From positions 1,426,001 to 1,490,000 of the forward strand of contig NC_015496.1 in assembly GCF_000212355.1 (NCBI RefSeq): a stretch of 64,000 nucleotides of DNA, in the 5' to 3' direction. The translations under genes were made by a program, and so were the position numbers. Within the stretch, counting starts at the first letter, position 1. Each line of letters opens with the position of its first letter. Shown here piece by piece: positions 197 through 62,472 of the stretch. A model generated the notes under the pieces. It was not told where the DNA came from. It saw only the letters and a program-made list of their open reading frames with translations, and searched no databases. The stretch is from Dokdonia sp. 4H-3-7-5 (lineage in GTDB: Bacteria > Bacteroidota > Bacteroidia > Flavobacteriales > Flavobacteriaceae).

Positions 197-1147
197 ATGG
201 ACAGAAGGAAATTTATACAAAAAGGAGCTCTCACGGGTTCCTTTTTAGGTTTAGGTAGTTTCGGGGTAAATGCTATGGTTAAAGGGATAGAAGATGTCTC
301 CGCTTTCGCGAAAGCGAAAAATGGAGCACATTCTTTTAATCTCAATTATGCACCACATGTAGGGATGTTTAAAGAGCTCGCTGGCGAAAATGTGATCGAT
401 CAGCTTCACTTTATGGCAGATCAAGGATTTACTGCCTTTGAAGACAATGAGATGCGCAACCGTCCTGTTTCCGAACAAAAAGCGATGGCGCTTGTCATGA
501 AAGAACGCGGAATGACCATGGGTGTTTTTGTTGCTCACAAAATACACTGGACAAAACCAAACCTAGCCAGCGGAAAACAAGAATGGCGTGATGAGTTTCT
601 GGCAGATATCAAAAGTTCTATAGAAGTTGCAAAGCGTGTAAATGCAAAATGGATGACCGTGGTGCCTGGTCACGTAGACTTGCGTCAAAATATTGATTTT
701 CAAACGGCAAATGTGGTAGAGACTTTAAAACAAGCTGCAGCGATTCTAGAACCACATGGAATTGTAATGGTGCTTGAACCATTAAATTTTAGAAATCATC
801 CAGGACTCTTTCTATCTAAGTCGCCACAAGCATACCAGATTTGTAAAGCAGTAGATAGTCCGTCATGTAAGATTCTTTTTGATATTTATCATCAGCAAAT
901 TCAAGAAGGAAACTTGATTCCTAACATAGAACAGTGTTGGGACGAGATTGCGTATTTCCAGATAGGGGATAATCCAGGGCGCAATGAGCCTACCTCTGGA
1001 GAGATTAACTATAAAAATGTATTTAAATACATTCATAGTCGTGGTTTTAAAGGAGTTTTAGGAATGGAGCATGGCAACAGTATCAAGGGGAAAGAAGGCG
1101 AGCAGCGTGTAATAGATGCGTATGTGGAGAGTGATCTCTTCTTATAA
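197..1147 (+). CDS. Tat-exported hydroxypyruvate isomerase-like TIM-barrel protein
   Basis: This 316-residue protein belongs to the xylose isomerase / AP endonuclease 2 TIM-barrel superfamily and is closest in layout to hydroxypyruvate isomerase. It opens with a twin-arginine signal (DRRKFIQKGAL, then a small-residue hydrophobic stretch to about residue 26), so the product is probably periplasmic. Metal-site segments are visible: EPLN near residue 195, the Asp and His of LFDIYH near 228, the GDNPGR loop near 258, and the Glu of GMEHG near the C-terminus. Residues 36-40 (AFAKA), just after the signal peptide in what should be a linker, are encoded by the iterated palindrome at 301. It probably acts on sugars or sugar acids together with the upstream dehydrogenase subunit. 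The substrate is not determinable. Confidence 0.8.
   Translation: MDRRKFIQKGALTGSFLGLGSFGVNAMVKGIEDVSAFAKAKNGAHSFNLNYAPHVGMFKELAGENVIDQLHFMADQGFTAFEDNEMRNRPVSEQKAMALVMKERGMTMGVFVAHKIHWTKPNLASGKQEWRDEFLADIKSSIEVAKRVNAKWMTVVPGHVDLRQNIDFQTANVVETLKQAAAILEPHGIVMVLEPLNFRNHPGLFLSKSPQAYQICKAVDSPSCKILFDIYHQQIQEGNLIPNIEQCWDEIAYFQIGDNPGRNEPTSGEINYKNVFKYIHSRGFKGVLGMEHGNSIKGKEGEQRVIDAYVESDLFL
301..316. repeat. Iterated palindrome copy 1 (exact core, in coding sequence)
   Basis: Exact GCTTTCGCGAAAGC core at 302-315, extended to CGCTTTCGCGAAAGCG. It lies in the linker after the Tat signal of the isomerase-like gene and is read in frame as AFAKA. Confidence 0.95.
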
Positions 1148-1234
1148 ATTATTTTTTAAAATAATACAATCAGAATCTCTTCGTTTGATAACGGAGTGTG
1201 TAGGATTTACTACTTTTACTCAAAACCCTAGCAG

Positions 1235-2113
1235 ATGAGTTCATCCTTTGAGAAATACCAGAAAAGACGATTGATTACCTCCTATTTTTCGGTGGTGATT
1301 AGTATTGCTTTGGTACTATTTTTACTGGGAATACTAGGATTACTAGTGCTTAACACCAAAAAAGTAGCCGACTATTTTAAGGAAACTATTGCAGTGGGTG
1401 TTTACTTTAAAGATGGAGCAAAAGATGTGGAAATGAAGCAGCTTGAGAAGTCTTTGTCGCTTGCAGAATACACGAAGTCCATACAATTTGTATCAAAAGA
1501 AGAAGCTGCCGAAGCGCATAGCGAAGCGCTAGGAGAAAACTTTGTAGATTACCTTGGAGAAAATCCACTACAAAATAGCATAGATTTATATCTTAATGCA
1601 GATTACGTGTCTGCTGAAAAAGTATCAGAAATCGCAGCAGAAATTGCTTCTAAAAACTTTGTAGAGGAAGTGACGTATGACAAGCCGTTAATCTCACTCC
1701 TTAACGACAATATTAAGAAAATGAGCCTGTGGATTCTCATTATCTCAGGGATATTCACTTTTATAGCAGTGTTGCTTATTAATAGTTCTATACGATTATC
1801 CGTATATGCTAAGCGATTTACCATAAAAACCATGCAGATGGTTGGAGCGACTAAAAAATTTATACGCAGGCCTTTCGTTTGGAAAAGTGTGCGTTTAGGG
1901 ATTATAGGAGCGCTTATAGCTATAGCAGGGATGGCTGGAGTATTGTATTATGCAAACAAGACTTTTCCTCAACTCACATTACTTGATGATCCACTTCTAC
2001 TAGGAGCACTTTTTGGAGGGGTATTTATGATGGGTATCGTGATTACTTGGTTTAGCACCTTTCTTGCAACACAACGTTTCTTAAATTTGCGCACAGACGA
2101 ATTATACTACTAG
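1235..2113 (+). CDS. ftsX: Cell division ABC-type permease FtsX
   Basis: This 292-residue protein has FtsX architecture. There is a short cytoplasmic N-terminus, TM1 at about residues 20-40, a periplasmic domain of about 120 residues, and three more TM segments (about 165-185, 220-240, 260-280). The MQMVGATKKFIRRPFVWK segment is the conserved cytoplasmic loop before TM3. FtsX pairs with the ATPase FtsE in the inner membrane to control septal peptidoglycan hydrolysis. No ftsE is adjacent, as is usual in Bacteroidetes. It starts the conserved run ftsX-DUF3098-uppP, with only 18 bp to the next gene, so co-transcription is likely. Confidence 0.93.
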   Translation: MSSSFEKYQKRRLITSYFSVVISIALVLFLLGILGLLVLNTKKVADYFKETIAVGVYFKDGAKDVEMKQLEKSLSLAEYTKSIQFVSKEEAAEAHSEALGENFVDYLGENPLQNSIDLYLNADYVSAEKVSEIAAEIASKNFVEEVTYDKPLISLLNDNIKKMSLWILIISGIFTFIAVLLINSSIRLSVYAKRFTIKTMQMVGATKKFIRRPFVWKSVRLGIIGALIAIAGMAGVLYYANKTFPQLTLLDDPLLLGALFGGVFMMGIVITWFSTFLATQRFLNLRTDELYY

Positions 2114-2131
2114 CAGTATTAAAGTATTACT

Positions 2132-2395
2132 ATGGGAGAACAAAAACGTAAAGAAGTTATTAAACAAGAAACCGAATTTATCTTTGGTAAGAAGAATTTT
2201 ACCTGGATGCTTATTGGACTTGGCGTGATTGCCTTAGGCTTTATACTAATGTCTGGTGGTGGTAGTGACGACCCTAATGTTTTTAATCCTGAGATCTACT
2301 CATGGAGACGTATACGTCTAGCACCTGCTGTGATTCTCATAGGTTTTGGTATAGAAGTATATGCGATACTACTTAACCCTAATAAAGGGAAGTAA
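2132..2395 (+). CDS. DUF3098 family membrane protein
   Basis: This small protein (87 aa) has two predicted membrane segments (about residues 24-42 and 62-80) separated by a short loop with SGGGSDDPNVFNPEIYSWRRIRLAP. The F-x-PEIYS-x-RRI-x-x-AP pattern is characteristic of DUF3098, a Bacteroidetes-restricted family of unknown function. It lies 18 bp after ftsX and 38 bp before uppP, the usual setting for this family. That suggests a role with envelope division or peptidoglycan lipid-carrier recycling, but only context supports this. Confidence 0.85.
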   Translation: MGEQKRKEVIKQETEFIFGKKNFTWMLIGLGVIALGFILMSGGGSDDPNVFNPEIYSWRRIRLAPAVILIGFGIEVYAILLNPNKGK

Positions 2396-2420
2396 CACTT
2401 GCCCCTTATAACGACAATCT

Positions 2421-4329: not shown

Positions 4330-5037
4330 ATGCTTACAGATCAAGATTATAAAGATGGGCAAGTACTCATTTTTGACAAACCGCTAGAGTGGACCTCATT
4401 CCAGCTGGTTAACAAAGTGCGCTGGCTTATACGTAAGAATCTTAATATAAAGAAGATAAAAGTAGGCCATGCAGGTACGTTAGATCCTTTGGCAACTGGC
4501 CTTATGATTATTTGTACGGGTAAGTTTACAAAGCGCTTACACGAGTTCGTTGGGCAAGAAAAGGAATATACGGGCACCATTGTTTTAGGTGGTACTACGC
4601 CTAGTTATGATCTTGAGACAGAAGTAGATCAAACTTTTTCTACAGAACATATTACTGATGAGGATATTTACGCTTTCGCGAAAGCGTACCAAGGAAACAT
4701 CATGCAACGCCCACCTGTATTTTCTGCACTCAAAAAGGAGGGCAAACGCTTGTATGAATTTGCACGAGCAGGAGAAGAAGTAGATATTTCTAAACGTGAG
4801 ATTAATATCTCATCTTTTGAAATCACTCGCATTGCAATGCCAGAAGTAGATTTTAAAGTGCGCTGTAGTAAAGGAACATATATTAGATCGCTAGCATTTG
4901 ATTTTGGCGAAGGACTCAAAAGTGGAGCTCATTTGAGTGCATTGAGAAGAACCAAAATAGGTAATTACAACGTAGATGATGCACAGTCTCTTGATGGATT
5001 TATAGCCGAAATTACAGCTGCATCCACAGAAGAATAA
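4330..5037 (+). CDS. truB: tRNA pseudouridine(55) synthase TruB
   Basis: The enzyme makes pseudouridine 55 in the T-loop of tRNAs. The catalytic block KVGHAGTLDPLATGL is at residues 44-58 with nucleophile Asp52. QRPPVFSALKKEGKRLYE follows near 125-142 and CSKGTYIRSLAFD near 180. At 235 aa it lacks the C-terminal PUA-type extension of longer TruB proteins, which is common in Bacteroidetes. Residues 114-120 (YAFAKAY), in the segment before the QRPP motif, are encoded by a full 18-bp copy of the iterated palindrome. So even a conserved housekeeping enzyme carries the element in frame. Confidence 0.96.
   Translation: MLTDQDYKDGQVLIFDKPLEWTSFQLVNKVRWLIRKNLNIKKIKVGHAGTLDPLATGLMIICTGKFTKRLHEFVGQEKEYTGTIVLGGTTPSYDLETEVDQTFSTEHITDEDIYAFAKAYQGNIMQRPPVFSALKKEGKRLYEFARAGEEVDISKREINISSFEITRIAMPEVDFKVRCSKGTYIRSLAFDFGEGLKSGAHLSALRRTKIGNYNVDDAQSLDGFIAEITAASTEE
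4670..4687. repeat. Iterated palindrome copy 2 (exact, 18 bp, in truB)
   Basis: ACGCTTTCGCGAAAGCGT, perfect over 18 bp, read in frame within truB as YAFAKAY. Confidence 0.96.
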
Positions 5038-5822: not shown

Positions 5823-5826
5823 GAGC

Positions 5827-7102: not shown

Positions 7103-7753
7103 TAGATATTCAAGAAATAAATCTCTCGGAATTTCGGCGGCACCTAGGCTCGCTAGATGGTCTGTATACATCTGGCAATCGATGAGGTGGTAATTTTCTT
7201 TTTCTAGCCTTCGCGAAAGCGTAATAAATCCCACTTTACTGGCATTGCTCATGGTTGCAAACATGCTTTCTCCACAAAATATTCCTTTCTCCTTTAGATC
7301 TATTCCATAAAGACCTCCGACTAATTTTTTATCATGCCAAACCTCAACGGAAATAGCATGACCTAGCTCGTGTAATCTGAGGTATGCATCTATAATATCA
7401 TTAGTAATCCACGTGCCATCTTGACCGTTGCGCTTAATGCGTTTACAAGCAAGTATGACTTCTAGAAAATTCTGGTTATAGGTAACTGTAAAGTGATTGT
7501 CTCGTAACACTTTTCGCATAGATTTTGATACGTGTACGTCACTAGGTTTTACTACCATACGCGGGTCTGGCGTCCACCATAAAATAGGCTGTCCCTCATT
7601 ATACCAAGGAAAAATGCCAGAATTATAAGCAAGTAATAACCAGTCTGTAGTGAGATCACCACCTACCATAAGTAACCCTTCCTCGTCTGCCAGATGGTGT
7701 TCTGGAAACCAAGGGTCATTATTCCAATGTTGATCTTCTGGGAGTAAAAGCAC
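7097..7753 (-). CDS. aat: Leucyl/phenylalanyl-tRNA--protein transferase
   Basis: The product (218 aa) transfers Leu or Phe from aminoacyl-tRNA to N-terminal Arg or Lys of proteins, marking them for ClpS/ClpAP degradation (N-end rule). Family motifs include FPWYNEGQPILWWTPDPRMV (near residues 49-68), WITNDIIDAY, GHAISVEVW, LVGGLYGI and GESMFATMSNASKVGF. A one-mismatch copy of the iterated palindrome lies near the C-terminus and is read here as TLSRRL. A TATCTTTG -7 box (7776-7783, minus strand) sits 22 bp upstream of the start. Confidence 0.95.
   Translation of the reverse strand: MLLLPEDQHWNNDPWFPEHHLADEEGLLMVGGDLTTDWLLLAYNSGIFPWYNEGQPILWWTPDPRMVVKPSDVHVSKSMRKVLRDNHFTVTYNQNFLEVILACKRIKRNGQDGTWITNDIIDAYLRLHELGHAISVEVWHDKKLVGGLYGIDLKEKGIFCGESMFATMSNASKVGFITLSRRLEKENYHLIDCQMYTDHLASLGAAEIPRDLFLEYLQ
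7207..7222. repeat. Iterated palindrome copy 3 (one mismatch, in aat)
   Basis: The 14-bp core at 7207-7220 matches except for C in place of T at 7209; the right arm runs on to GCGT. It is read on the minus strand as LSRR in aat. Confidence 0.85.
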
Positions 7754-9585: not shown

Positions 9586-9601
9586 CGCTTTCGCGAAAGC
9601 T
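9586..9601. repeat. Iterated palindrome copy 4 (exact core, intergenic)
   Basis: Exact core at 9587-9600, between the divergent flavin reductase gene and the 39-aa peptide gene. The stretch 9602-9794 otherwise shows no gene and no convincing promoter. Confidence 0.94.
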
Positions 9602-12853: not shown

Positions 12854-12869
12854 CGCTTTCGCGAAAGCG
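12854..12869. repeat. Iterated palindrome copy 5 (exact, intergenic)
   Basis: CGCTTTCGCGAAAGCG between csaA and the OsmC gene (same direction), 89 bp after the csaA stop and 72 bp before the OsmC start. Confidence 0.95.
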
Positions 12870-15296: not shown

Positions 15297-15311
15297 ATTT
15301 TCGCGAAAGCG
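15297..15311. repeat. Iterated palindrome copy 6 (two mismatches, intergenic)
   Basis: The core position 15297-15310 has two changes in the left arm; TTTCGCGAAAGCG is intact. It lies a few bases beyond the T-run of the minus-strand terminator of the aldehyde dehydrogenase gene. Confidence 0.75.
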
Positions 15312-17660: not shown

Positions 17661-17698
17661 AATATTATTCTTTGTATAAAAATACAATTTATAGAAGT

Positions 17699-17716
17699 AC
17701 GCTTTCGCGAAAGCGT
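17699..17716. repeat. Iterated palindrome copy 7 (exact 18 bp, intergenic)
   Basis: ACGCTTTCGCGAAAGCGT, directly after the T-run of the minus-strand terminator of the CAP lipoprotein gene and 38 bp upstream of the nbaC start. It could wrongly be translated as an N-terminal extension of nbaC. Confidence 0.96.
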
Positions 17717-17753
17717 AAAAAAACAACCCCGTCTACTGTTGCAAACGGGGTTG
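17717..17753 (-). terminator. Rho-independent terminator after the CAP lipoprotein gene
   Basis: A 9-bp GC-rich stem (17724-17732 with 17745-17753), 12-nt loop, and seven T's on the minus strand, abutting palindrome copy 7. Confidence 0.88.
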
Positions 17754-21053: not shown

Positions 21054-21071
21054 ACGCTTTCGCGAAAGCGT
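21054..21071. repeat. Iterated palindrome copy 8 (exact 18 bp, intergenic)
   Basis: ACGCTTTCGCGAAAGCGT between the divergent CBS-domain and M28 peptidase genes. Confidence 0.96.
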
Positions 21072-21127: not shown

Positions 21128-23497
21128 ATGAAACGTTTATCCCATATTATTTCATTTATTCTAGTGTTGTTTTTAGTATTTGTGAGCTTTTACTCACTCA
21201 TGCCTAAGACTATAGGTGATAAAGAAACTCCGCTTACAGAATTTTCTACGGCAAGAGCATTATCACATTTAAAAGTAATCTCGGCAAAGCCGCATTTTGT
21301 GGGTACAGCGGCACATACAGAAGTGCAGCAATATATTGTGCAAGAACTTCGCAAGCTTGGTCTAGAGCCTCAAGTACAAGAAGGTTTTGTAAATGAAGAA
21401 TGGAATGGGTACAGTAATCTTACAAAGCCTCAAAATATCCTAGCGCGCATAAAAGGAAGTGGTGATGGTAAGGCACTATTACTTATGTCACATTATGATA
21501 GTGCGCCACACAGTGCATCTCATGGCGCAAGTGACGCAGGTTCTGGTGTGGTAACTATACTAGAAAGTGTACGAGCTTACCTTGCAAGCGGAGTCACTCC
21601 TGTAAATGATATCATAATCTGCATCACAGACGCCGAAGAAATTGGCCTAGATGGCGCTCAGCTTTTTGTAGATGAACATCCATGGGCAAAAGACGTGGGA
21701 CTTGCCCTCAACTTTGAAGCACGTGGTAGTGGTGGTCCTTCTAATATGATTGTAGAGACTAATCACGGTAATAAAAATCTCATTAATGGATTTATGGAAG
21801 CAGGAGTGGAGTATCCCGTAGGGACTTCATTAATGTATAGTATTTACAAAATGTTGCCTAATGATACGGACTCGACTGTCTTAAGAGAAGATGGTGATAT
21901 TGATGGGTTTTTCTTTGCATTTATAGATGATCATTTTGACTATCATACGGTAAATGACACTTTTGAAAACTTGGATCGCAAGACACTAGAGCACCAAGGA
22001 ACTTACTTAATGCCATTACTCAAGTACTTTGCAGCTACAGACCTTACCAATATAAAGTCTGATGAAGATTATGTGTACTTTGATGCCGCTGTGGCAAACT
22101 TTGTTGCATATCCATTTTCTTGGATCTGGCCTATGGTAGCAATTGCAATTGTTCTGTTTATAGCATTGCTAGTTTATGGATTTAAAAAGGAACAATTGAG
22201 GAGAAAATATGTCGCTAGAGGTTTCAGAACTTTCTTCCTTACATTAATCTTAGGAGGAGGGCTTTTTTACCTATTGTGGGAGTTATTAAAGTATGTATAT
22301 CCTAGTTATGAAGACATGTTGCCTGTTTTTATTTATAATGGTCACTGGTATATTATTGCCTTTGCCTTATTAGGTTTTAGTCTATGTATGGGTATGTATC
22401 ATAGGCTTACCGTGGCACAAAACACGGCAAGTAATATGGTAGCTCCACTCACTATGTGGCTCATCATTAATATACTCGTTGCAGTTTATTTAAAAGGCGC
22501 TGCCTTTTTTATCATTCCTGTATATTTTGGATTAATTGCTTTTTATGTGCTTATAGCGCAGCGTAAGCCTAGTGTGTTGTTACTTGTCTTACTGTGTGCT
22601 CCAGCTATATTTTTATTAGCTCCTCTAGTACAGTTCTTTCCTGTAGGTTTAGGACCAGATATGCTCTATGCGAGTGTAATCTTTTTGATACTCCTTTTTG
22701 GACTAGTATTGCCAGTATTTGGTTTATATAGAAACAAGAAGTTCTTAGCATATTTGAGTTTGCTAGGAGCGCTCGTTTGTTTTGGGATTGCACACATGAA
22801 CTCAGATGCTGCCGTAGATCGTCAAGCACCTAATAGTCTTATTTATTATCAAAATACAGATACAAATCGAGCATACTGGGCAACATATAATAAGTCGCTT
22901 GATGACTGGACCAAAGGATACCTAGGCGAAAACCCAGAACAAGCTACTATGTACATTGGTAATGCTGCAGGTAGTAAATACAATACTCCATATACCTATG
23001 CAAAGGAAACTGCTGTAATCGATTTACCAGAAAGTACGGTGCAGCTAGATAAAGACACGCTGGTAGATGGGTTGAGGTATATCACACTTACAGTCACACC
23101 TAATCGTACTGTGCATCAAATGCGTATGTACACAGCTATAGAAACTCCTTTACAGCATATCTCTTGGAACGGCGTTGCTGTAAAAGCAGATAGTACTGAG
23201 ACGCTTTATAAGAAACGAGGTAGTAAAGGTATTTTAAGTTATTACAGAGGGAAAAATGACAAGCTGGAGTTTAAATTTGCCGTGCCAGAAGGTGTAAATC
23301 CTAAATTTACACTCAAGGAGTTCTCGTACGATTTATTAGAAAACCCAAAATTTACAGTTTCGGCGAGACCTAATACTACGATGCCAAAACCATTTGTACC
23401 TAACGATGCTATCATAGTAGAGCGTACGATTGATATTGCTGAGTACGCTTTCGCGAAAGCGAAAAAAGATACTATCAACACTGGTGTAGAAGAGTAA
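21128..23497 (+). CDS. M28-family membrane metallopeptidase
   Basis: The large membrane peptidase (789 aa) has an N-terminal span (about 7-25), a zinc peptidase domain to about residue 310, about nine hydrophobic spans (330-570) and a C-terminal beta-rich extracytoplasmic domain. Zinc and catalytic motifs are visible: LLLMSHYDSAP with the first His/Asp, HGASDAGSGV, ITDAEEIGLDG with the catalytic Glu pair, and FDYHTVNDT with the last His. The layout resembles ER-type M28 aminopeptidases. Near the C-terminus, palindrome copy 9 is read in frame as YAFAKAKK, adding a Lys-rich tail. It probably degrades peptides in the periplasm. Confidence 0.88.
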   Translation: MKRLSHIISFILVLFLVFVSFYSLMPKTIGDKETPLTEFSTARALSHLKVISAKPHFVGTAAHTEVQQYIVQELRKLGLEPQVQEGFVNEEWNGYSNLTKPQNILARIKGSGDGKALLLMSHYDSAPHSASHGASDAGSGVVTILESVRAYLASGVTPVNDIIICITDAEEIGLDGAQLFVDEHPWAKDVGLALNFEARGSGGPSNMIVETNHGNKNLINGFMEAGVEYPVGTSLMYSIYKMLPNDTDSTVLREDGDIDGFFFAFIDDHFDYHTVNDTFENLDRKTLEHQGTYLMPLLKYFAATDLTNIKSDEDYVYFDAAVANFVAYPFSWIWPMVAIAIVLFIALLVYGFKKEQLRRKYVARGFRTFFLTLILGGGLFYLLWELLKYVYPSYEDMLPVFIYNGHWYIIAFALLGFSLCMGMYHRLTVAQNTASNMVAPLTMWLIINILVAVYLKGAAFFIIPVYFGLIAFYVLIAQRKPSVLLLVLLCAPAIFLLAPLVQFFPVGLGPDMLYASVIFLILLFGLVLPVFGLYRNKKFLAYLSLLGALVCFGIAHMNSDAAVDRQAPNSLIYYQNTDTNRAYWATYNKSLDDWTKGYLGENPEQATMYIGNAAGSKYNTPYTYAKETAVIDLPESTVQLDKDTLVDGLRYITLTVTPNRTVHQMRMYTAIETPLQHISWNGVAVKADSTETLYKKRGSKGILSYYRGKNDKLEFKFAVPEGVNPKFTLKEFSYDLLENPKFTVSARPNTTMPKPFVPNDAIIVERTIDIAEYAFAKAKKDTINTGVEE
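23446..23461. repeat. Iterated palindrome copy 9 (exact, in M28 peptidase)
   Basis: CGCTTTCGCGAAAGCG, read in frame as AFAKA near the C-terminal tail of the M28 peptidase. Confidence 0.95.
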
Positions 23498-24440: not shown

Positions 24441-24455
24441 GTTTTCGCGAAAGCG
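24441..24455. repeat. Iterated palindrome copy 10 (one mismatch, intergenic)
   Basis: GTTTTCGCGAAAGC, one change from the core, placed directly after the terminator. Only 994 bp from copy 9, it is the single close pair in the window. Confidence 0.85.
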
Positions 24456-31317: not shown

Positions 31318-31335
31318 ACGCTTTCGCGAAAGCGT
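31318..31335. repeat. Iterated palindrome copy 11 (exact 18 bp, 5' leader)
   Basis: ACGCTTTCGCGAAAGCGT, four bases after the -7 box and 18 bp before the threonine dehydrogenase ATG. Confidence 0.96.
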
Positions 31336-33497: not shown

Positions 33498-34472
33498 TTA
33501 CTCCATATTTTTTTGAAAAAACTCTAGCGTACGCAGTTCATTATAGTAAAATTCTCCTTTCATATAGAATCCTACATGACCTCCATGGTCTGGCATTTCT
33601 AAGTGTATAATATTAGAGTTTTTTGCCTGTGCTATAGGATAGCAATCACCGTGAAGAAAGCTATCATTCTTTGCATTGAGAATAAGGGTAGGTACAGTAA
33701 TCTTATCAAGGTAGTCAAAGCTGCTTGCTCGAGCATAATAATCAAGAGCATCCTCAAAGCCATGTGCCGGTGCGGTATACAAATCGTCAAAACGTTTTAA
33801 GCTATTGATTTTTTTATATTCTTCCTTATTCATCTTATCAGGAAACTGTTGCATCTTCTTGCGATACTTAGCTCTAAGGTGTACTAAAAATGATGTGCGA
33901 TAAATGATATTTTCCCTTTTTGTAAGTTGTTCAAGAGAAGCTTTAAGATCTGCTGGAACACCTATGCAAGCAGCACATGTCACTTGTGAAGGGATATCAT
34001 CTTGTTCTCCTAGATACTTGAGCACGGCATTGCCTCCTAGACTTACTCCATATAGGTTAATATGGCTATAACCCTTAGTAACAAGAGCGTTTACTACAAA
34101 CCTAATATCGCCGGTATCGCCGCTGTGGTATGATCTATACAATCTATTCTGGCTACCACTGCACCCTCTAAAGTTTATAGCAGCCACATCATAACCATGA
34201 TTGCTCAACAACTTTGCGGTGCCTAGTATGTATGGTCGCTGTGCGTCTCCCTCAAGTCCATGTAGCAATACTGCAACTTTTTTAATGTTGTCTCCCTGTG
34301 GTGTTGCGGCTAGTGTCCAGTCTATATCTATATAATCCCTATCTGGAAGTTCCATACGCTCACGAGTTTGCGTGATCCCCTTTACACGTCTAATCTTTGC
34401 AGAATAAATGGTGGAGAAATGTGGATCTTTAAAAAGTCCGCTTGCGCGAAAACGTGAGGGTACAATGGGCAT
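33498..34472 (-). CDS. YheT-family alpha/beta hydrolase
   Basis: The 324-residue hydrolase has YheT features: VAVLLHGLEGDAQRPYI (oxyanion region), AAINFRGCSGSQNRLYRSYHSGDTGDI, the nucleophile elbow GVSLGGN, Asp in LNAKNDSFL and His in MPDHGGHVGFY. The family has likely esterase activity, with the physiological substrate unknown. The N-terminal PHFSTIYSAKIRRV segment also fits YheT. It is divergent from the TetR gene, with palindrome copy 12 in between. Confidence 0.92.
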   Translation of the reverse strand: MPIVPSRFRASGLFKDPHFSTIYSAKIRRVKGITQTRERMELPDRDYIDIDWTLAATPQGDNIKKVAVLLHGLEGDAQRPYILGTAKLLSNHGYDVAAINFRGCSGSQNRLYRSYHSGDTGDIRFVVNALVTKGYSHINLYGVSLGGNAVLKYLGEQDDIPSQVTCAACIGVPADLKASLEQLTKRENIIYRTSFLVHLRAKYRKKMQQFPDKMNKEEYKKINSLKRFDDLYTAPAHGFEDALDYYARASSFDYLDKITVPTLILNAKNDSFLHGDCYPIAQAKNSNIIHLEMPDHGGHVGFYMKGEFYYNELRTLEFFQKNME

Positions 34473-34535: not shown

Positions 34536-34551
34536 GCTTTCGCGAAAGCGT
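34536..34551. repeat. Iterated palindrome copy 12 (exact core, intergenic)
   Basis: GCTTTCGCGAAAGCGT between the divergent YheT and TetR genes, 94 bp before the TetR start. Confidence 0.95.
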
Positions 34552-36524: not shown

Positions 36525-37655
36525 TTAATTTTTAAATGGATTATGCTGTTTATATTCCGTCATTTTAATCTGGCGTATAAATGGTTTAAAAAACATATTT
36601 GCTACAGTACGACGGTGTTTTATATAACACCTTAAGTGCTCTGGTATTGCTCCTAGAGTACTTTTGATTTCAGATGCAGTTCTACCTAAGTTAATGTCTT
36701 TCACCCCTAGTAAAAGACCTAATCGAATATAATCGTTTAACATTCTTGGGTAGATGGCATCTGTTTTATTTGTAGTATAATCAATCCCCACATAATGAGC
36801 ACTGAGCTGTTCGTTATGTAAAAAAGCGGTTGAAAATCCTACTATTTCCCCTTTCTTACTATAGGTGCTAATGATTACATTTTCGGGAAACCGCTCTTTA
36901 AGTAATGCGTAGGTTTCAATGTCAATAAAAGCAGTGTTAAACAAGGCTTTCTCTGCAACATCTAGATATAAGGATTTAAGTTTTTCTTTATGGGTTCTTA
37001 TTTCGTTTGCGGTAAGTGAAGTCTTTACAAGAGCGTTACTAGACGAGTCTGCCTTATTAACTTTTATACGGTATTTTGATTTTAAAGAGCCTTTATATTC
37101 CTCAAAATTTTTCCAAGTAACATGTATGTGCATGTTAGGTTCGACGGCAAATGATTGAAAGTGCTGTTTTTCTACTACACTTGCAGCGGTGTCTTGTGTG
37201 GCATTAAAGTCTTTTAAAAAACAAACACTTGACTTAGTGGTTTTTTGTAGTGTTTTAAGCTTTCGCGAAAGCGTATTATATATACGTCTCCTATCTATTC
37301 CTTTTTTGATCCACATTCCATACTCACCGCTTAGGAAAACGTTTCCACAAACTAGAATGTGCGTTTTTTTATTGCTTAGGTAGCATTGTACAGATTTGGC
37401 TAGTTTTTGATAGTAGGGAAGATTGCTCGGTGCGCCTTCAAGAGAGACACGTACCCGCTGGAGAATAGCAATAGCGATAGGTTGCTCTTTACTCGTGAAA
37501 ACCAAATATCGATAATCTATCGTGCTATTTGCCTCTTCAAAAGAAGCCAAAAATAGTTTTGAAAAGTAAAAGGTTTGATCACAACCTAACTCTATGAAGG
37601 TCGTGTCAGGGATGTCGTTTATAGTAAAGTACTCTTGAGTGATGATTTTAGGCAA
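36525..37655 (-). CDS. FemAB/BioF2-like acyltransferase family protein
   Basis: The 376-residue protein has two GNAT-like halves as in FemAB and related peptidoglycan-recognition transferases: RVRVSLEGAPSNLPYYQKLAK near 70-90 and a second domain with KSLYLDVAEKALFNTAFIDIETYALLKERFPEN and HYVGIDYTTNKTDAIYPRMLNDYIRLGLLLGVKDINLGRTASEIKSTLGA. The latter resembles GNAT acetyl-CoA regions of this type. Palindrome copy 13 is read as TLSRKLKT in the middle. It overlaps the downstream-strand EamA gene by 8 bp, so the two are co-transcribed. The substrate is unknown. Confidence 0.78.
   Translation of the reverse strand: MPKIITQEYFTINDIPDTTFIELGCDQTFYFSKLFLASFEEANSTIDYRYLVFTSKEQPIAIAILQRVRVSLEGAPSNLPYYQKLAKSVQCYLSNKKTHILVCGNVFLSGEYGMWIKKGIDRRRIYNTLSRKLKTLQKTTKSSVCFLKDFNATQDTAASVVEKQHFQSFAVEPNMHIHVTWKNFEEYKGSLKSKYRIKVNKADSSSNALVKTSLTANEIRTHKEKLKSLYLDVAEKALFNTAFIDIETYALLKERFPENVIISTYSKKGEIVGFSTAFLHNEQLSAHYVGIDYTTNKTDAIYPRMLNDYIRLGLLLGVKDINLGRTASEIKSTLGAIPEHLRCYIKHRRTVANMFFKPFIRQIKMTEYKQHNPFKN
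37259..37274. repeat. Iterated palindrome copy 13 (exact core, in FemAB-like gene)
   Basis: Core 37259-37272 inside the FemAB-like gene, read on the minus strand in the LSRK frame rather than the AFAKA frame. Confidence 0.95.
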
Positions 37656-39450: not shown

Positions 39451-40162
39451 GGTAATCTTGAGAAAGCTCCCATGGGATTGTAATCTGCTTGTTCTCCATA
39501 TTAAATGAGGATACACCCATATCATTATAAATAAGAACAATACCTTCTTCGGTAAATCCTACTTCTTTTAGGTAGCTATCGGGAAGGTTTGATGGGGTGA
39601 CGTGAAATGTTTCTTGCGGATATTCTTTTTCAAATTGCGCTTTCGCGAAAGCGTAAAAATCATCATCGAGCAATTCATCATCACTATATTCTTCTCCAGT
39701 TTGTGGATTGATATTAAGATACATTTCGTTGTCAAAACCACTCGCACCACCCATAAATTGATATGAATAAAATACTATAGATAGTAAGTTGTTAGAACCA
39801 AATGATATCGCAGAATCTATAGTGATTTCATGAGCGTCCGAAAGTTCTGTCGTTTCCGGATATGATATTTGTGAGTTGTTAATATAGAGTTCAATGGCAT
39901 CATTGATAGAGTTAGGTAAACTTTCTGTCTCGTTATACAGTGTGTTTATTGTAGAAGTTTGAATCCAGTTATTTACAGTGATAGCAGCTTCTTCTGGTGT
40001 TTCCATATTGAGAATTGATAATGCAATTTCTGGACATGGCTGGCTATTACAAATAGCAAAATCTTTTGTAGAATAGCTATCTGTGGTAGCTGTATAGGTT
40101 ATTGTCTTTTCGCAGCTTATAAAAAGTAAGATTACAAGTATGGAAGGAAGCAGTTTTTTCAT
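39440..40162 (-). CDS. DUF3298-type lipoprotein
   Basis: The 240-residue product has a lipoprotein signal (lipobox FISC, Cys17). The fold matches RsiV-like DUF4163/DUF3298 proteins: QFMGGASGFDNEMYLNINPQTGEEYSDDELLDDDF and the C-terminal TEEGIVLIYNDMGVSSFNMENKQITIPW. Related domains sit in anti-sigma or lysozyme-inhibitor proteins. Palindrome copy 14 is read in frame as YAFAKAQ between the two halves of the domain. Its 3' end overlaps the DinB gene. Confidence 0.82.
   Translation of the reverse strand: MKKLLPSILVILLFISCEKTITYTATTDSYSTKDFAICNSQPCPEIALSILNMETPEEAAITVNNWIQTSTINTLYNETESLPNSINDAIELYINNSQISYPETTELSDAHEITIDSAISFGSNNLLSIVFYSYQFMGGASGFDNEMYLNINPQTGEEYSDDELLDDDFYAFAKAQFEKEYPQETFHVTPSNLPDSYLKEVGFTEEGIVLIYNDMGVSSFNMENKQITIPWELSQDYLNL
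39638..39653. repeat. Iterated palindrome copy 14 (exact, in DUF3298 gene)
   Basis: CGCTTTCGCGAAAGCG, read on the minus strand as AFAKA inside the DUF3298 lipoprotein gene. Confidence 0.95.
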
Positions 40163-42607: not shown

Positions 42608-43960
<1,353 letters not shown>

Positions 43961-44013: not shown

Positions 44014-44029
44014 CGCTTTCGCGAAAGCG
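44014..44029. repeat. Iterated palindrome copy 15 (exact, after gdhA terminator)
   Basis: CGCTTTCGCGAAAGCG, directly downstream of the gdhA terminator. Confidence 0.96.
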
Positions 44030-47130: not shown

Positions 47131-49542
47131 ATGCGCATACTTTTTACCCTACTCTTATTTGTAGTTGTCTCTGTACAAGCTCAAAAAATAACGGTGCTTG
47201 ATGTAGATACGCGCGAACCTATAATAGGAGTTGCTATTTTTAATAAAGATAAAAGTAAAAGTGCCCTCACAGATTTTGATGGGCGAGCAGATGTGACCGC
47301 TTTCGCGAAAGCGGAAATCCTTTATTTTCAAGAAGTCGCACATAAAGATGCGCAATACAGCAAAGCGGAAATAATAGCGCTTTCTAATAGAATCTTCTTG
47401 AAGCAGAAGGATAATCAGCTTACGGAAATTGTGCTCTCTGCTAGCAAATTTGCACAAAGCCGAAAGAACGTTCCACAAAAGATAGTAGGAATCTCATCTG
47501 AAGATATACAGCGCGCAAACCCACAAACAGCAGCAGATTTGCTACAAGCAAGTGGCTCTGTATTTGTGCAAAAAAGTCAGCAAGGTGGAGGTAGTCCTTT
47601 AATAAGAGGATTCTCTACAAATAGGTTACTCATTACCCTAGATGGTGTGCGTTTTAATACCGCAATCTTTAGAGGAGGAAACGTACAGAATGTAATCTCA
47701 ATAGATCCATTTACTATAGATCGTACAGAGGTTCTACTAGGTCCAGGATCTGTAATTTATGGTAGTGATGCTGTGGGTGGAGTGATGAACTTTTATACAA
47801 AGCAACCTAAGCTTTCATTTACAGAAACTAATGTGGTTACAGGCACTGCAGTTGCTCGTGTAAATACTGCAAATAATGAAAAGACAGGACATTTTGATAT
47901 AAATATAGGGAAGCGCAACTGGTCTTTTCTTACTAGTGCAAGCTACTCAGATTATGATGACCAGCGTCAAGGGAAGCATGGTCCAGATGATTATTTACGC
48001 ACTGATTTTGTAAAAATTATAGACGGCGTTGATACCGCCGTGGTTAATGATGATCCTTTAATACAAGAAGGTTCTGCCTTTAACTCATTAAACTTAATGC
48101 AAAAAGTGCGTTTTAGGCCTAACGATACTTGGGATTTTAACTTAGGTCTTATTTATGCTACTACATCAGATTATGATCGTTATGATAGATTAACGAGAAA
48201 AAGAGATGGAGAGTTTAGAGCAGCAGAGTGGTTTTATGGGCCACAGCAATGGTTTATGACTAACCTCCAGATTGATAAAGAAGGTTATGGTAGTTTTTAC
48301 AATCGAGCAAGAGCAACCATTACGTATCAGAACTCTAAAGAGAGTAGAAATGACCGTGATTTTGGCGGAACAGATTTTTTTGAAACTGACGAGAATGTAG
48401 ATGCGTTCTCTGTAGGTTTAGACTTTACAAAAAATCTAAAATCAAAACGTAATAAAGTCTTTTATGGGCTAGAGTATGTGCACAATAAAGTAGGATCTAA
48501 TGGTCAAGTAACAGATATCACTACGGGAACTATAAGTAATCAAGCTTCTCGCTATCCAGACGGATCTACATGGCAATCTCTAGCAGCTTATGGAAGCATA
48601 CAATTAGAACTTACAGAGAAGACACGCCTGCAATCTGGCCTGCGTTATAACCACATACTACTTGCAGCCGATTTTTCTGATAACAATGAGTTTTTTGCAC
48701 TGCCTTTTGATAAAGCAGATTTAAGTACTGGGAACCTTACAGGAAGTATAGGTGTAACTCATGAGGTTTCTAAGACTGTAAGCCTCAAAGCAAATCTAGG
48801 AACAGCGTTTAGAGCGCCTAACATCGATGATGTAGGTAAGATATTTGATAGCGAGCCAGGATCTGTGGTAGTGCCTAATCCTAATCTTAAATCTGAGTAT
48901 GCTTACAATGGCGAACTAGGATTTAACTTCATTTTTTCTAACGCACTAAGGCTGGATGTAAACGGTTATTACACCTTGCTGGAGAATGCCTTAGTACGTC
49001 GTGATTTTGATCTTGATGGCGTAACAGAGATATCTTATCAGGGAGAGTTAAGTAACGTGCAAGCAATACAGAATGCCTCAAAAGCTGAGGTTTATGGTAT
49101 AGAAATAGGTGCAGATGCAAAACTTTCTAAAACCCTGAAACTTACAGGGCAGTTCAATTATACGAGTGGTGTAGAACAAGATGAAGATGGTAGTTACATT
49201 CCGTTTAGGCACGTGGCGCCGCTTTTTGGTAATAACCATTTAATATGGACTAGTAATAAATGGACGCTAGATGCTTCGGTGGCTTATAGTGGCTCTTTTG
49301 ATTTTGATGAACTTGCTCCTAGTCAACAAAGTAACTCACACCTTTATGCACTAGACGGAGATGGTAATCCTTACTCGCCTAGCTGGTATGAACTTAGTTT
49401 AGGTAGCCGTTATGTGCTTTCAGATAGTTGGTCTTTTACTGCAAATCTTGATAATATTACAGACCAGCGATACCGTACATATTCATCTGGTATAGCTGCT
49501 GCGGGAAGAAATTTAATACTTGCGGCGACTTATAATTTTTAA
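47131..49542 (+). CDS. TonB-dependent outer-membrane receptor
   Basis: The 803-residue receptor has a signal peptide ending VQA. A CarboxypepD_reg-like domain (about 20-85) follows, then a plug domain with ASKFAQSRKNVPQKIVGISSEDIQRANPQTAADLLQASGSVFVQKSQQGGGSPLIRGFSTNRLLITLDGVRFN, and a long beta barrel ending in an aromatic residue (LAATYNF). Such receptors import metal chelates or vitamins. DGVRFN and RGFSTNR are plug features shared with haem/vitamin-type receptors, but the substrate is undecided. Palindrome copy 16 is read as TAFAKAE in the N-terminal domain. It starts one base after the recO stop. Confidence 0.92.
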   Translation: MRILFTLLLFVVVSVQAQKITVLDVDTREPIIGVAIFNKDKSKSALTDFDGRADVTAFAKAEILYFQEVAHKDAQYSKAEIIALSNRIFLKQKDNQLTEIVLSASKFAQSRKNVPQKIVGISSEDIQRANPQTAADLLQASGSVFVQKSQQGGGSPLIRGFSTNRLLITLDGVRFNTAIFRGGNVQNVISIDPFTIDRTEVLLGPGSVIYGSDAVGGVMNFYTKQPKLSFTETNVVTGTAVARVNTANNEKTGHFDINIGKRNWSFLTSASYSDYDDQRQGKHGPDDYLRTDFVKIIDGVDTAVVNDDPLIQEGSAFNSLNLMQKVRFRPNDTWDFNLGLIYATTSDYDRYDRLTRKRDGEFRAAEWFYGPQQWFMTNLQIDKEGYGSFYNRARATITYQNSKESRNDRDFGGTDFFETDENVDAFSVGLDFTKNLKSKRNKVFYGLEYVHNKVGSNGQVTDITTGTISNQASRYPDGSTWQSLAAYGSIQLELTEKTRLQSGLRYNHILLAADFSDNNEFFALPFDKADLSTGNLTGSIGVTHEVSKTVSLKANLGTAFRAPNIDDVGKIFDSEPGSVVVPNPNLKSEYAYNGELGFNFIFSNALRLDVNGYYTLLENALVRRDFDLDGVTEISYQGELSNVQAIQNASKAEVYGIEIGADAKLSKTLKLTGQFNYTSGVEQDEDGSYIPFRHVAPLFGNNHLIWTSNKWTLDASVAYSGSFDFDELAPSQQSNSHLYALDGDGNPYSPSWYELSLGSRYVLSDSWSFTANLDNITDQRYRTYSSGIAAAGRNLILAATYNF
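47298..47313. repeat. Iterated palindrome copy 16 (exact, in TonB receptor)
   Basis: CGCTTTCGCGAAAGCG, read as AFAKA in the N-terminal domain of the receptor. Confidence 0.95.
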
Positions 49543-49546: not shown

Positions 49547-49564
49547 ACGCTTTCGCGAAAGCGT
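49547..49564. repeat. Iterated palindrome copy 17 (exact 18 bp, intergenic)
   Basis: ACGCTTTCGCGAAAGCGT, five bases after the receptor stop and between convergent genes; no separate terminator, so the palindrome itself may end transcription. Confidence 0.96.
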
Positions 49565-54183: not shown

Positions 54184-54198
54184 GTTTTCGCAAAAGCG
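54184..54198. repeat. Iterated palindrome copy 18 (two mismatches, asd leader)
   Basis: GTTTTCGCAAAAGC differs from the core at two positions. It keeps the expected spacing to its neighbours, so it looks like a decayed member. Confidence 0.65.
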
Positions 54199-56384: not shown

Positions 56385-56405
56385 AAAATGCTTAGCACTA
56401 TATTT

Positions 56406-56432
56406 AACCCGCTCTTTTGAGTGGGTTTTTTT
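56406..56432 (+). terminator. Rho-independent terminator after the DoxX-like gene
   Basis: A 9-bp stem (56406-56414 with 56419-56427, one G-T pair), TTTT loop and a T-run; palindrome copy 19 follows three bases later. Confidence 0.85.
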
Positions 56433-56434
56433 AT

Positions 56435-56450
56435 GCTTTCGCGAAAGCGT
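56435..56450. repeat. Iterated palindrome copy 19 (exact core, after terminator)
   Basis: GCTTTCGCGAAAGCGT immediately after the terminator and 43 bp upstream of the prolyl oligopeptidase start. Confidence 0.95.
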
Positions 56451-56493
56451 AATAACCCGTATCTTGAATACGCAATCAAACACAACCCGTATT

Positions 56494-59740: not shown

Positions 59741-59758
59741 ACGCTTTCGCGAAAGCGT
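59741..59758. repeat. Iterated palindrome copy 20 (exact 18 bp, intergenic)
   Basis: ACGCTTTCGCGAAAGCGT, 20 bp beyond the gpsA terminator and just before the stop of the convergent gene. Confidence 0.96.
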
Positions 59759-61295: not shown

Positions 61296-61303
61296 CAAAT
61301 TTA
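61296..61303 (-). promoter_or_regulatory. -7 promoter element for pheS
   Basis: TAAATTTG on the minus strand, full TAnnTTTG match, 32 bp before the ATG at 61263. Confidence 0.45.
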
Positions 61304-61380
61304 AGAATAAAATTGGGGTGTAGCAGTATAACAAAGCCGTAAAAGCAGTAAGATTATATAGTCGCTACCGTGTTTAGTTT

Positions 61381-61743
61381 TTAAGAGATTAAGCCTTTTT
61401 CAAGAAAGTATTGTACAATCGCATCTTTCATGAGTATTTGTTGCTCACCAGCCTTAAGTGGTGGCAGTGCTTCTAGCACTTTATAGTGAGGCCATCCTTC
61501 AGGATCATCATAATCATATTGATAATACCCAAATGGTTCAAGTAAACGACAGATGGCAATATGCATCAAGTTCATTTTCTCGTCTTTTTTAAAAGTTTTA
61601 TCTAGCTGTCCTAATTCTTGTATACCTATGAGGTAGATAATGCTATCTAAATCCATAGCGCCTTTATCACCATCTGCAAAACGGGTAGATAGTTTATCAA
61701 CTACCGCCGCATATCGTTCTTTGAGTTGTTCGTCTCTAGCCAT
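61381..61743 (-). CDS. Conserved hypothetical protein (Flavobacteria)
   Basis: I recognise no family name. The protein (120 aa) is soluble and mainly helical: RDEQLKERYAAVVDKLSTRFADGDKGAMDLDSIIYLIGIQELGQ and LMHIAICRLLEPFGYYQYDYDDPEGWPHYK, then a C-terminal helix (MKDAIVQYFLEKGLIS). Acidic aromatic stretches (YYQYDYDDPEGWPHY) stand out. It lies upstream of pheS on the same strand with a 117-bp gap, so a shared transcript is possible. Confidence 0.78.
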   Translation of the reverse strand: MARDEQLKERYAAVVDKLSTRFADGDKGAMDLDSIIYLIGIQELGQLDKTFKKDEKMNLMHIAICRLLEPFGYYQYDYDDPEGWPHYKVLEALPPLKAGEQQILMKDAIVQYFLEKGLIS

Positions 61744-61885
61744 ATATTTCTCTTCTGTACGTGAATTTCTTCTCGCGGTTAAGCTTCAATAGGTGAAAGC
61801 TTTTGGGTAATGCCATGAAATAGCATCTATACCAATTTTAAGCTGCAAAAATACCACCATTAACTGAAATTACTATCTTTAGCGC

Positions 61886-62440
61886 ATGAACACTATTGAC
61901 ATCATTTTTGGTATTATTTTAATACTAGGCGCTATTCAAGGATTGCGCAAGGGATTATTTGTAGAGCTAGCATCTCTTGTAGGGCTTGTTGCTGGAATTT
62001 ACGGAGCCATCCACTTTTCTCATTACGTAGGGGACTGGCTTGTAGAAAAAACAGCGTGGAGTGAGCAAATTATAAATCTTACTGCCTTTGCTGCGACCTT
62101 TATCATTATTGTACTTGTGGTCTCTCTAGCGGGAAAATTACTTACCAAAGTGGCAAATTTTGCGATGCTTGGCATTGTAAACAAGATAGTAGGAGCAGCC
62201 TTTGCAGTACTTAAATTTGCTTTCTTAATTAGCGTAGTACTCATGTTTATAGATGCTGCAGACCGTCAAATATCATTTATAGGTGACGATAAAAAAGAGC
62301 AATCGGTGTTATATCCCATCATTCAACCTTTGGCACCTGCACTTCTTCCTTCTATTCTCAAAAAAGCAAAGGATGAAGATATCTACAACCCAGATAAAGA
62401 AGAAGAGCCGACTGAAACAGACGACTCTTCTAATATTTAA
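61886..62440 (+). CDS. CvpA-family membrane protein
   Basis: The 184-residue protein has the CvpA layout: four membrane spans in the first 130 residues starting TIDIIFGIILILGAIQGLRKGLFVELASLVGLVAGIYGAIHF, with the typical GLRKGLF motif. An acidic cytoplasmic tail (NPDKEEEPTETDDSS) follows. CvpA-type proteins are inner-membrane, linked to colicin V production and envelope homeostasis. A TATCTTTA box (one mismatch to TAnnTTTG) lies four bases before the ATG, again a near-leaderless arrangement. Confidence 0.9.
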   Translation: MNTIDIIFGIILILGAIQGLRKGLFVELASLVGLVAGIYGAIHFSHYVGDWLVEKTAWSEQIINLTAFAATFIIIVLVVSLAGKLLTKVANFAMLGIVNKIVGAAFAVLKFAFLISVVLMFIDAADRQISFIGDDKKEQSVLYPIIQPLAPALLPSILKKAKDEDIYNPDKEEEPTETDDSSNI

Positions 62441-62454
62441 AAATGTAGATGGTT

Positions 62455-62472
62455 ACGCTTTCGCGAAAGCGT
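62455..62472. repeat. Iterated palindrome copy 21 (exact 18 bp, intergenic)
   Basis: ACGCTTTCGCGAAAGCGT between the convergent cvpA-like and SulP genes, 14 bp after the cvpA stop; no other terminator is seen there. Confidence 0.96.

What the first reader, a model, noticed from the sequence alone, without database searches (positions are those of the whole stretch)
301..62472. Highly iterated GCTTTCGCGAAAGC palindrome
Directly seen: the 14-bp core occurs 17 times exactly (often as 18-bp ACGCTTTCGCGAAAGCGT) plus 4 copies with one or two changes. A given 14-mer is expected about 0.0002 times in 64 kb, so this is massively over-represented. Roughly two thirds of copies are intergenic although intergenic DNA is only about a tenth of the window. 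At about one per 3 kb, a 3-Mb genome would hold on the order of 1000 copies. Established parallels are the cyanobacterial HIP1 palindrome and the uptake sequences of Haemophilus and Neisseria. This motif matches neither. Possible roles: nucleoid-protein or chromosome-partition site, DNA-uptake or recombination mark, orphan methyltransferase or restriction-related site (it contains TCGCGA), or a mobile REP-like unit.
Basis: partly seen in the sequence, partly recalled or inferred. Interest (0 to 1): 0.88.

Follow-up and report, generated by a model that had tools for sequence, protein, structure and literature searches.

The report
Evenly spaced genome-wide palindrome in Dokdonia
A marine bacterium and its close relatives carry hundreds to about a thousand nearly unchanging copies of one mirror-image DNA word, spread at unusually even intervals over the chromosome, which looks like an address mark for an unknown machine that recognises the cell's own DNA.

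Summary
GCTTTCGCGAAAGC occurs 17 times exactly in the window and 757 times in the 3.39-Mb Dokdonia genome (reversed control 0); its core TTTCGCGAAA occurs 1012 times (control 10). The full signal is symmetric, TTACGCTTTCGCGAAAGCGTAA, with G-poor outward flanks to about 25 bp from the centre. Where a copy aligns with a relative, the 14-mer differs at 2 of 508 bases (10 more gapped), while DNA 41-100 bp away differs at 764 of 4254. Copies lie in genes and in every kind of intergenic space and avoid each other (gaps under 500 bp: 7 seen, 40.5 expected). Among 299 family genomes it is common only in Dokdonia and two unnamed genera; named Nonlabens contigs carry it too. Some phage contigs and an island in a motif-poor genome also carry it. 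26 related genomes instead repeat a non-palindromic word, CTTCGGAAA. The pattern resembles DNA-uptake-sequence dialects, but the word is a palindrome, the pilus/secretion ATPase is missing in 5 of 8 rich genomes, and no reader was found. A chromosome-organising site is the main rival. My searches found no published description.

The parts
302..315 (.). exact 14-mer, inside ORF 197-1147(+)
   Evidence: core kept in G004, G006, G001
4672..4685 (.). exact 14-mer, inside ORF 4330-5037(+)
   Evidence: kept in G004, G006, G001
7207..7220 (.). decayed copy (1 mismatch); intact at the same place in G004, G006 and G001
9587..9600 (.). exact 14-mer, divergent intergenic
   Evidence: kept in G004, G006, G001
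12855..12868 (.). exact 14-mer, tandem intergenic
   Evidence: kept in G004, G006, G007; not aligned in G001
15297..15310 (.). one-armed copy (core intact, 2 mismatches), intergenic
   Evidence: core kept in G004, changed in G006, not aligned in G001
17701..17714. exact 14-mer, tandem intergenic by my gene caller (inside ORF 17124-17726 with a TTG start)
   Evidence: kept in G004, G006, G001
21056..21069 (.). exact 14-mer, divergent intergenic
   Evidence: kept in G004, G006, G001
23447..23460. exact 14-mer, inside the 3' end of a long ORF (21128-23497)
   Evidence: kept in G004, G006; not aligned in G001
24441..24454 (.). near copy with intact core, convergent intergenic
   Evidence: core kept in G004 and G006, altered with gaps in G001
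31320..31333 (.). exact 14-mer, divergent intergenic by my gene caller
   Evidence: kept in G004, G006, G001
34440..34453 (.). 2-mismatch match without the core; possibly chance
34536..34549 (.). exact 14-mer, divergent intergenic
   Evidence: kept in G004, G006; not aligned in G001
37259..37272 (.). exact 14-mer, in coding sequence
   Evidence: kept in G004, G006, G001
39639..39652 (.). exact 14-mer, in coding sequence
   Evidence: kept in G004, G006, G001 and G007
44015..44028 (.). exact 14-mer, tandem intergenic upstream of porZ
   Evidence: kept in G004, G006, G001, G007
47299..47312 (.). exact 14-mer, inside a TonB-dependent receptor gene (47131-49542)
   Evidence: kept in G004, G006, G001, G007
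49549..49562 (.). exact 14-mer, convergent intergenic
   Evidence: kept in G004, G001, G007; not aligned in G006
54184..54197 (.). decayed copy (2 mismatches); the core is intact in G004, G006 and G001
56435..56448. exact 14-mer; tandem intergenic by my gene caller, inside the longest ORF 56332-58662
   Evidence: kept in G004, G006, G001
59743..59756 (.). exact 14-mer, convergent intergenic
   Evidence: kept in G004, G001; not aligned in G006
62457..62470 (.). exact 14-mer, convergent intergenic
   Evidence: kept in G004, G006, G001, G007

Best explanation
A lineage-specific self-DNA mark. Shown: about 1000 copies of a two-fold-symmetric word, strongly conserved where they align, spaced evenly, present on the chromosome, on some phage contigs and on an island in another genus, and limited to a few genera, while related genera repeat a different word. 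Inferred: a two-fold-symmetric protein reads it as double-stranded DNA over about 50 bp (strict 10-14 bp core, then TTA/TAA, then a G-poor tract on each side), and each copy lets the DNA around it be accepted as self in DNA exchange (uptake in natural transformation, or a step of recombination right after). It would work like the uptake sequences of Neisseriaceae and Pasteurellaceae, including 'dialects', but with a palindromic signal and without a pilus-type ATPase in most of the genomes tested. Copies would be kept because DNA carrying them is exchanged and repaired more often; a second copy within about 1 kb adds little and is lost.
For: 757 exact copies / 1012 cores in the genome. The 18 genomes of the genus that were searched, own included, have 369-905 exact copies. 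Where a copy aligns, the 14-mer is nearly invariant: 3 of 504 bases differ in 36 close comparisons, 2 of 508 (10 more gapped) in 37 mid-distance ones, against 414 of 4257 and 764 of 4254 at 41-100 bp. Spacing CV 0.60 against 0.97 for class-matched random placing. Copies both in coding (118 of 254 cores) and non-coding DNA. 26 of 299 family genomes (my tally) have at least 150 copies of CTTCGGAAA at 3 times or more its reversed control, and at most 26 palindrome cores; the 5 palindrome-rich genomes of that draw have 2-39 CTTCGGAAA. In G093 a stretch from about 32 to 119 kb of one contig, with a large serine recombinase, carries 21 cores and only 2 copies of the host's own word, the pattern that PMC7371117 (passages) uses to trace ICEs between uptake-sequence dialects. 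ComEC in 40 of 40 genomes tested. Passages of PMC2397512: Neisseria uptake sequences are on average 97% identical against about 85% background, with spacing that matches conversion fragments. Riemerella columbina, which that paper places in Flavobacteriaceae, prefers its own DNA (PMC7965970, sections 16 and 19).
Against: No PF00437 (T2SSE) match above cut-off in 5 of 8 palindrome-rich genomes: G000, G001, G003, G207, G027. Known uptake sequences are not palindromes and, in that author's view, not as evenly spaced as chromosome-compacting sequences would be (PMC1939737 passages); the strong evenness here therefore favours the rival. Ten viral contigs that I chose for their matches carry 2-5 cores each, which uptake does not obviously require. 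CTTCGGAAA is spaced at random in G295 and G093, unlike the palindrome, so the two words may not be one system. ComEC is in all 40 genomes tested, so it does not discriminate. Turnover exists: of 25 cores in the G004 stretch 4 are changed and 2 not aligned in the window, of 21 in G006 2 and 2, of 25 in G001 5 and 6. No competence of Dokdonia is shown in anything I saw, and no receptor was found.
Confidence: 0.38

Rival explanations
1. Chromosome-organising site: a dimeric DNA-binding protein of this clade binds about 1000 evenly spaced palindromes and folds, anchors or segregates the chromosome; resident phages and integrated elements carry sites so that they leave no gap.
For: Dyad symmetry with independent arms and symmetric flanks; over-even spacing with mutual avoidance; all genomic contexts; copies on viral contigs and on an island; strong conservation.
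Against: No reader found; one ParB only in each of 8 palindrome-rich genomes, its helix-turn-helix alike by eye in rich and poor genomes; no significant trend with distance from the skew switch (Spearman -0.22, p 0.17, 39 stretches); known site-specific bacterial nucleoid proteins have far fewer sites (recalled).
Confidence: 0.32
2. Recombination or repair hotspot that works like Chi but from both sides because it is a palindrome; the T/G-rich stretch 5' of the site on each strand would become the RecA-coated tail.
For: One core per 3.35 kb, similar to Chi in E. coli (recalled); T/G-rich 5' and A/C-rich 3' flanks on both strands; evenness fits selection for distance to the nearest site; two isolated Nonlabens phages annotated with their own ERF recombination protein have no core.
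Against: Known Chi sites are 5-8 nt and not palindromic (recalled); a strict 14-mer plus about 50-bp footprint is too long. The possibly related CTTCGGAAA shows no bias to the G-rich strand (45 against 49; 21 of 115 sites in stretches of weak skew set aside).
Confidence: 0.12
3. HIP1-like palindrome kept through an orphan methyltransferase or a restriction system acting on TCGCGA.
For: Contains TCGCGA; highly iterated palindromes in cyanobacteria track methyltransferases (PMC4390886 passages).
Against: The constraint covers 14 bp and more, while only 61 of 315 TCGCGA sites in 844 kb lie outside the 10-mer core; even spacing is not expected of a methylation site.
Confidence: 0.06
4. Transcription terminators, operators or another regulatory site.
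For: Density is highest between convergent genes, 1.49 per kb.
Against: 32 cores between divergent genes and 118 in coding sequence; outward flanks are A-rich rather than T-rich, so there is no U tract; arms are not complementary beyond the core; even spacing.
Confidence: 0.05
5. REP/MITE-like mobile unit spread by insertion.
For: High copy number; one orthologous place differs by a 12-bp gap with small gaps beside it.
Against: No repeat beyond about 25 bp of the centre; of the aligned places where one partner lacks the core, most differ by substitutions, 2 by gaps.
Confidence: 0.02

Closest known systems
DNA uptake sequences (DUS) of Neisseriaceae / USS of Pasteurellaceae
   Same: About 1000-2000 copies; strict 9-12 bp core with softer flanks; conservation above background; copies in and between genes; lineage-specific dialects; foreign-dialect islands (passages)
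   Different: This word is a perfect palindrome with symmetric flanks; no pilus/secretion ATPase in 5 of 8 rich genomes; also on viral contigs; uptake not shown
HIP1 (GCGATCGC) of cyanobacteria
   Same: Highly iterated palindrome of unsettled function, limited to one lineage
   Different: Longer (14-22 bp), rarer than the 500-2500 per Mb that PMC4390886 gives for high-frequency HIPs, over-evenly spaced, no sign that an inner 6-mer is the target
Noc/parS/SlmA/matS-type chromosome sites
   Same: Palindromic sites for dimeric proteins; parS and Noc sites are also TTTC...GAAA palindromes (recalled)
   Different: Many more copies (recalled for the known ones), spread over the whole chromosome; ParB tested and not the likely reader
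Chi sites
   Same: Similar density in E. coli (recalled); would benefit any replicon repaired by recombination
   Different: Palindromic, much longer

Membership tests
DNA uptake sequence (DUS/USS) | DNA carrying the word is taken up preferentially | not testable with these tools
   needs an uptake assay
DNA uptake sequence (DUS/USS) | massive over-representation in one lineage | tested here: met
DNA uptake sequence (DUS/USS) | conservation above background at orthologous places | tested here: met
   (sites chosen for an intact core in one partner)
DNA uptake sequence (DUS/USS) | type IV pilus or related uptake machine in the host | tested here: not met
   PF00437 over cut-off in 3 of 8 palindrome-rich genomes only; ComEC 40 of 40
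DNA uptake sequence (DUS/USS) | related lineages use variant words (dialects) | tested here: inconclusive
   CTTCGGAAA in 26 of 299 genomes, exclusive of the palindrome, but random spacing and only loose sequence similarity
HIP1-type palindrome | GCGATCGC sequence | tested here: not met
   different sequence
HIP1-type palindrome | cognate orphan methyltransferase | not tested
   no methyltransferase survey of the genome was run
ParB/Noc-type site | a ParB-family paralogue reads it | tested here: not met
   one ParB in each of 8 palindrome-rich genomes; helix-turn-helix alike by eye in rich and poor genomes
REP/MITE | a larger mobile unit with insertion polymorphism | tested here: not met
Restriction/methylation site | constraint limited to the short recognition site | tested here: not met
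   14-mer and flanks constrained; methylation itself not testable here
Intrinsic terminator | hairpin followed by a T tract at gene ends | tested here: not met
   A-rich outward flanks, divergent and coding copies
Chi site | protects DNA from, or redirects, the cell's RecBCD/AddAB-type enzyme | not testable with these tools
   needs a recombination assay; the enzymes were not searched for

The most novel reading that the evidence does not exclude
Marine Flavobacteriaceae run an undescribed self-DNA recognition system, outside the two proteobacterial families known for uptake sequences, with at least two mutually exclusive dialects (palindromic GCTTTCGCGAAAGC and asymmetric CTTCGGAAA), read by an unknown protein and largely independent of type IV pili; resident phages and integrated elements adopt the mark of their host.
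Probability: 0.27. Interest if true: 0.92.

Novelty: new variant of a known kind. Interest (0 to 1): 0.78.

Why it matters
A palindrome of about 1000 copies that is kept base for base while its surroundings drift implies a cellular machine that must find these sites. If it is an uptake mark, it would be the first outside Neisseriaceae and Pasteurellaceae as far as the papers seen here go, and could explain self-preference in a phylum without an obvious uptake pilus. If it is an architectural mark, it would be, as far as I recall, the densest site-specific chromosome-organising system known in bacteria. Either way it hints at the host of origin of phages and integrated elements, and a DNA pull-down can find its reader.

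Tried and rejected
Exact-string searches of the paper library found nothing for the palindrome or for CTTCGGAAA/TTTCCGAAG; Dokdonia + palindrom gave 5 papers that look unrelated in the listing. The hairpin/cruciform idea was tested through arm complementarity and failed beyond the core. The pilus/secretion ATPase as a marker of the trait failed (over cut-off in 3 of 8 rich and 5 of 22 other genomes; all 30 have weaker sub-cut-off matches). No parS-like 16-mer with two or fewer mismatches was found in the 844-kb sample or in the 18 parB loci of about 3.3 kb, so the parS of these genomes stays unknown. GCGAAAAGCG in G270 was a tandem repeat, not a dispersed word. The 14-mer in viral contigs: of 132 scored sites 4 have a flank score above 8 and the median is -7.0, against a mean of 5.5 for own sites, so many are probably chance hits in other viruses. 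The PorZ tree left out 3 rows and held 3 short ones because my script cut those reading frames badly; its rows outside the genus are the best matches to the window's PorZ, and its root and the place of genus g11 are uncertain. My working guess that g11 is Nonlabens was not borne out by a comparison with named loci. A PorZ search of the phage collection gave no match.
Full report
What it is and where. The window is bases 1426001-1490000 of a single-contig genome of 3,389,993 bp. The 14-mer occurs 17 times exactly in the window with 5 near copies and 757 times in the genome, reversed control 0. The core TTTCGCGAAA occurs 1012 times, control 10.

The full signal. I took 39 evenly spread 20-kb stretches plus the window, 844,000 bases of which 7,500 are masked. 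They hold 254 cores, 195 of them perfect 14-mers; 25 places match the 14-mer with exactly one mismatch, 17 of them at the two outer bases of an arm, and 49 each with two and three. The symmetric consensus is TTACGCTTTCGCGAAAGCGTAA. From about 11 to 25 bp on each side the outward strand is G-poor (6-9% against 14-18% farther out) and A/C-rich, in coding and non-coding copies alike. The two arms do not match each other beyond chance, so the flanks are not selected to pair into a longer hairpin. This is what a two-fold-symmetric DNA-binding protein with a footprint of about 50 bp would leave; that protein is inferred, not found.

Where copies lie. With a simple gene caller of my own (654 genes), 118 of 254 cores are in coding sequence (0.17 per kb), 71 in tandem (0.83), 32 in divergent (0.78) and 28 in convergent gaps (1.49 per kb), and 5 at stretch ends. 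In coding sequence 71 of 118 are in one frame, which for the 14-mer reads Ala-Phe-Ala-Lys. Density shows no significant trend with distance from the skew switch near 1.3 Mb (Spearman -0.22, p 0.17, 39 stretches; 7.1 cores per stretch in the 9 nearest, 5.5 in the 10 farthest).

Spacing. 214 gaps have a coefficient of variation of 0.60. In 2000 random placings that keep each stretch's coding and non-coding numbers the mean is 0.97 and the lowest 0.79. Gaps under 500 bp: 7 against a mean of 40.5 (lowest 22); under 1000 bp: 21 against 66.7 (lowest 48). Copies avoid each other.

Conservation. From the window outwards, G004 keeps 19 of 19 cores; G006 16 of 19 (1 changed, 2 not aligned); G001 14 of 19 (1 changed with gaps, 4 not aligned); the shorter G007 stretch 6, with 13 not aligned. 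The other way round, of 25 cores in the G004 stretch the window keeps 19 (4 changed, 2 not aligned), of 21 in G006 17 (one of them aligned to another place; 2 changed, 2 not aligned), of 25 in G001 14 (5 changed, 6 not aligned). Over the 14-mer 3 of 504 bases differ in 36 close comparisons and 2 of 508 (10 more gapped) in 37 mid-distance ones, against 414 of 4257 and 764 of 4254 at 41-100 bp. These sites were chosen for an intact core in one partner, so losses count on one side only, and the mid-distance pairs share one genome. At 11-25 bp 19 of 88 changes involve G in the close set and 45 of 182 in the mid set, against 288 of 750 and 584 of 1451 at 41-150 bp. The window's near copies at 7207 and 54184 have the core intact at the same places in G004, G006 and G001 and differ from it there by one base; at two other places where G004 has a core the window differs by several bases.

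Taxonomic range. The 18 genus genomes searched, own included, have 369-905 exact copies. In 299 family genomes the core is high only in G000, G003 (g1), G027, G258 (g11) and G207 (g191), 559-1107 copies; all others have 0-34. Named Nonlabens contigs also carry the 18-mer, as do one contig each of a Muricauda, a Flavobacteriaceae MAG, a Cytophagaceae MAG and an Aureimonas; the last has unrelated flanks. g11 and g191 are unnamed, and a comparison with named loci did not identify them. In a PorZ tree Dokdonia groups with G207 and with G161 (support 99/94), which has only 34 cores; g11 is separate on a long branch, so one gain with a loss or several gains are all possible.

Mobile DNA. Ten viral contigs that I picked for their matches hold 2-5 cores each, 39 in about 262 kb; two of them may be relatives of each other by the spacing of their cores. 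Of ten proteins from five such contigs 7 match phage families, among them a transposase and a baseplate hub, both on one contig. Two isolated Nonlabens phages (lytic by recall) have no core and no TCGCGA in 35.7 and 35.0 kb. In G093, 23 of 26 cores lie on one contig, 21 of them between 32 and 119 kb. Proteins of that stretch match metal-efflux families, an Eco57I-type methylase, a strawberry-notch-like helicase, a large serine recombinase and FtsZ; no conjugation gene was looked for, and its ends are not mapped. The host's own word CTTCGGAAA occurs 12 times in the first 30 kb, only at 43118 and 47505 within 31-119 kb, and again from 120947.

A second word. Looking for other repeated words in 40-60 kb each of motif-poor relatives turned up CTTCGGAAA. 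Over the 299 genomes, 26 by my tally have at least 150 copies and at least 3 times the reversed control (1166 against 93 in G295, 817 against 58 in G093); the five palindrome-rich genomes have 2-39, below their own controls, but many genomes with neither word are also below control. It shows no bias to the G-rich strand (45 against 49; 21 of 115 sites in stretches of weak skew set aside) and lies in T-rich, C-poor context. Its spacing is random in G295 and G093, unlike the palindrome. GCTT-CG-GAAA and GCTTT-CGC-GAAA look alike; that they are dialects of one system is a guess.

Reader and machine. PF02195 finds one ParB in each of 8 palindrome-rich genomes and one or two in 10 others, with a helix-turn-helix that looks alike by eye. 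PF00437 passes its cut-off in 8 of 30 genomes: 3 of 8 palindrome-rich ones and 5 of 22 others. ComEC (PF03772) is in 40 of 40. No reader was found.

Reading. The closest parallel is the uptake-sequence class. Passages of PMC2397512 report on average 97% identity of Neisseria sequences against about 85% background, spacing that matches conversion fragments, and depletion in recently acquired DNA. Passages of PMC7371117 trace integrated elements by foreign dialects, a pattern like that of G093 here. [quoted passage not shown] the last point favours the rival here. PMC7811141 (passages) says that species of two families show strong sequence preference among those tested; PMC3630211 was seen only in a search listing. 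Sections 16 and 19 of PMC7965970 report self-DNA preference in Riemerella columbina; its list of repeated words of up to 10 bases is A/T-rich and no function is assigned. Against the uptake reading stand the palindrome, the missing ATPase and the viral copies, so a chromosome-organising site stays close behind. HIP1 (PMC4390886, passages) is similar only in being an iterated palindrome. As recalled knowledge, GCGAAAGC, which each strand contains, forms an unusually stable DNA mini-hairpin; I did not test this.

Verdict. The function is open, with a self-DNA mark slightly ahead of a chromosome-organising site. That no paper describes it rests in an open-access library only.

Noticed in passing
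family-wide; e.g. G295, G080, G029, G093: A non-palindromic 9-mer CTTCGGAAA is over-represented up to 14-fold against its reversed control in 26 of 299 Flavobacteriaceae genomes, none of them rich in the palindrome.
   Followed up: partly
G093 contig C3, about 32-119 kb (L392-L396): Island with metal-efflux genes, Eco57I-type methylase, strawberry-notch-like helicase and large serine recombinase near ftsZ, carrying the Dokdonia-type palindrome in a host that uses another word.
   Followed up: partly
viral contigs G315-G324: Viral contigs, one with a transposase and a baseplate hub, carry the palindrome at roughly one per 6-7 kb.
   Followed up: partly
L450:13291-13342: Tandem array of a 7-base unit (GCGAAAA) in G270.
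   Followed up: no
L444 or L445 (G222): 11 copies of GACTCACGACTC-type 12-mers in 40 kb, probably a tandem repeat.
   Followed up: no
own 844-kb sample: A second 14-base palindrome, CCTCTTCGAAGAGG, occurs 3 times.
   Followed up: no
G161: Relative of G207 in the PorZ tree with neither word in clear excess (34 palindrome cores against control 21; 95 CTTCGGAAA against control 115): a possible loss or pre-gain case.
   Followed up: no
parB loci L420-L437: No parS of the common TGTTTCACGTGAAACA type (recalled) within two mismatches in the roughly 3.3 kb around parB in any of 18 genomes.
   Followed up: no
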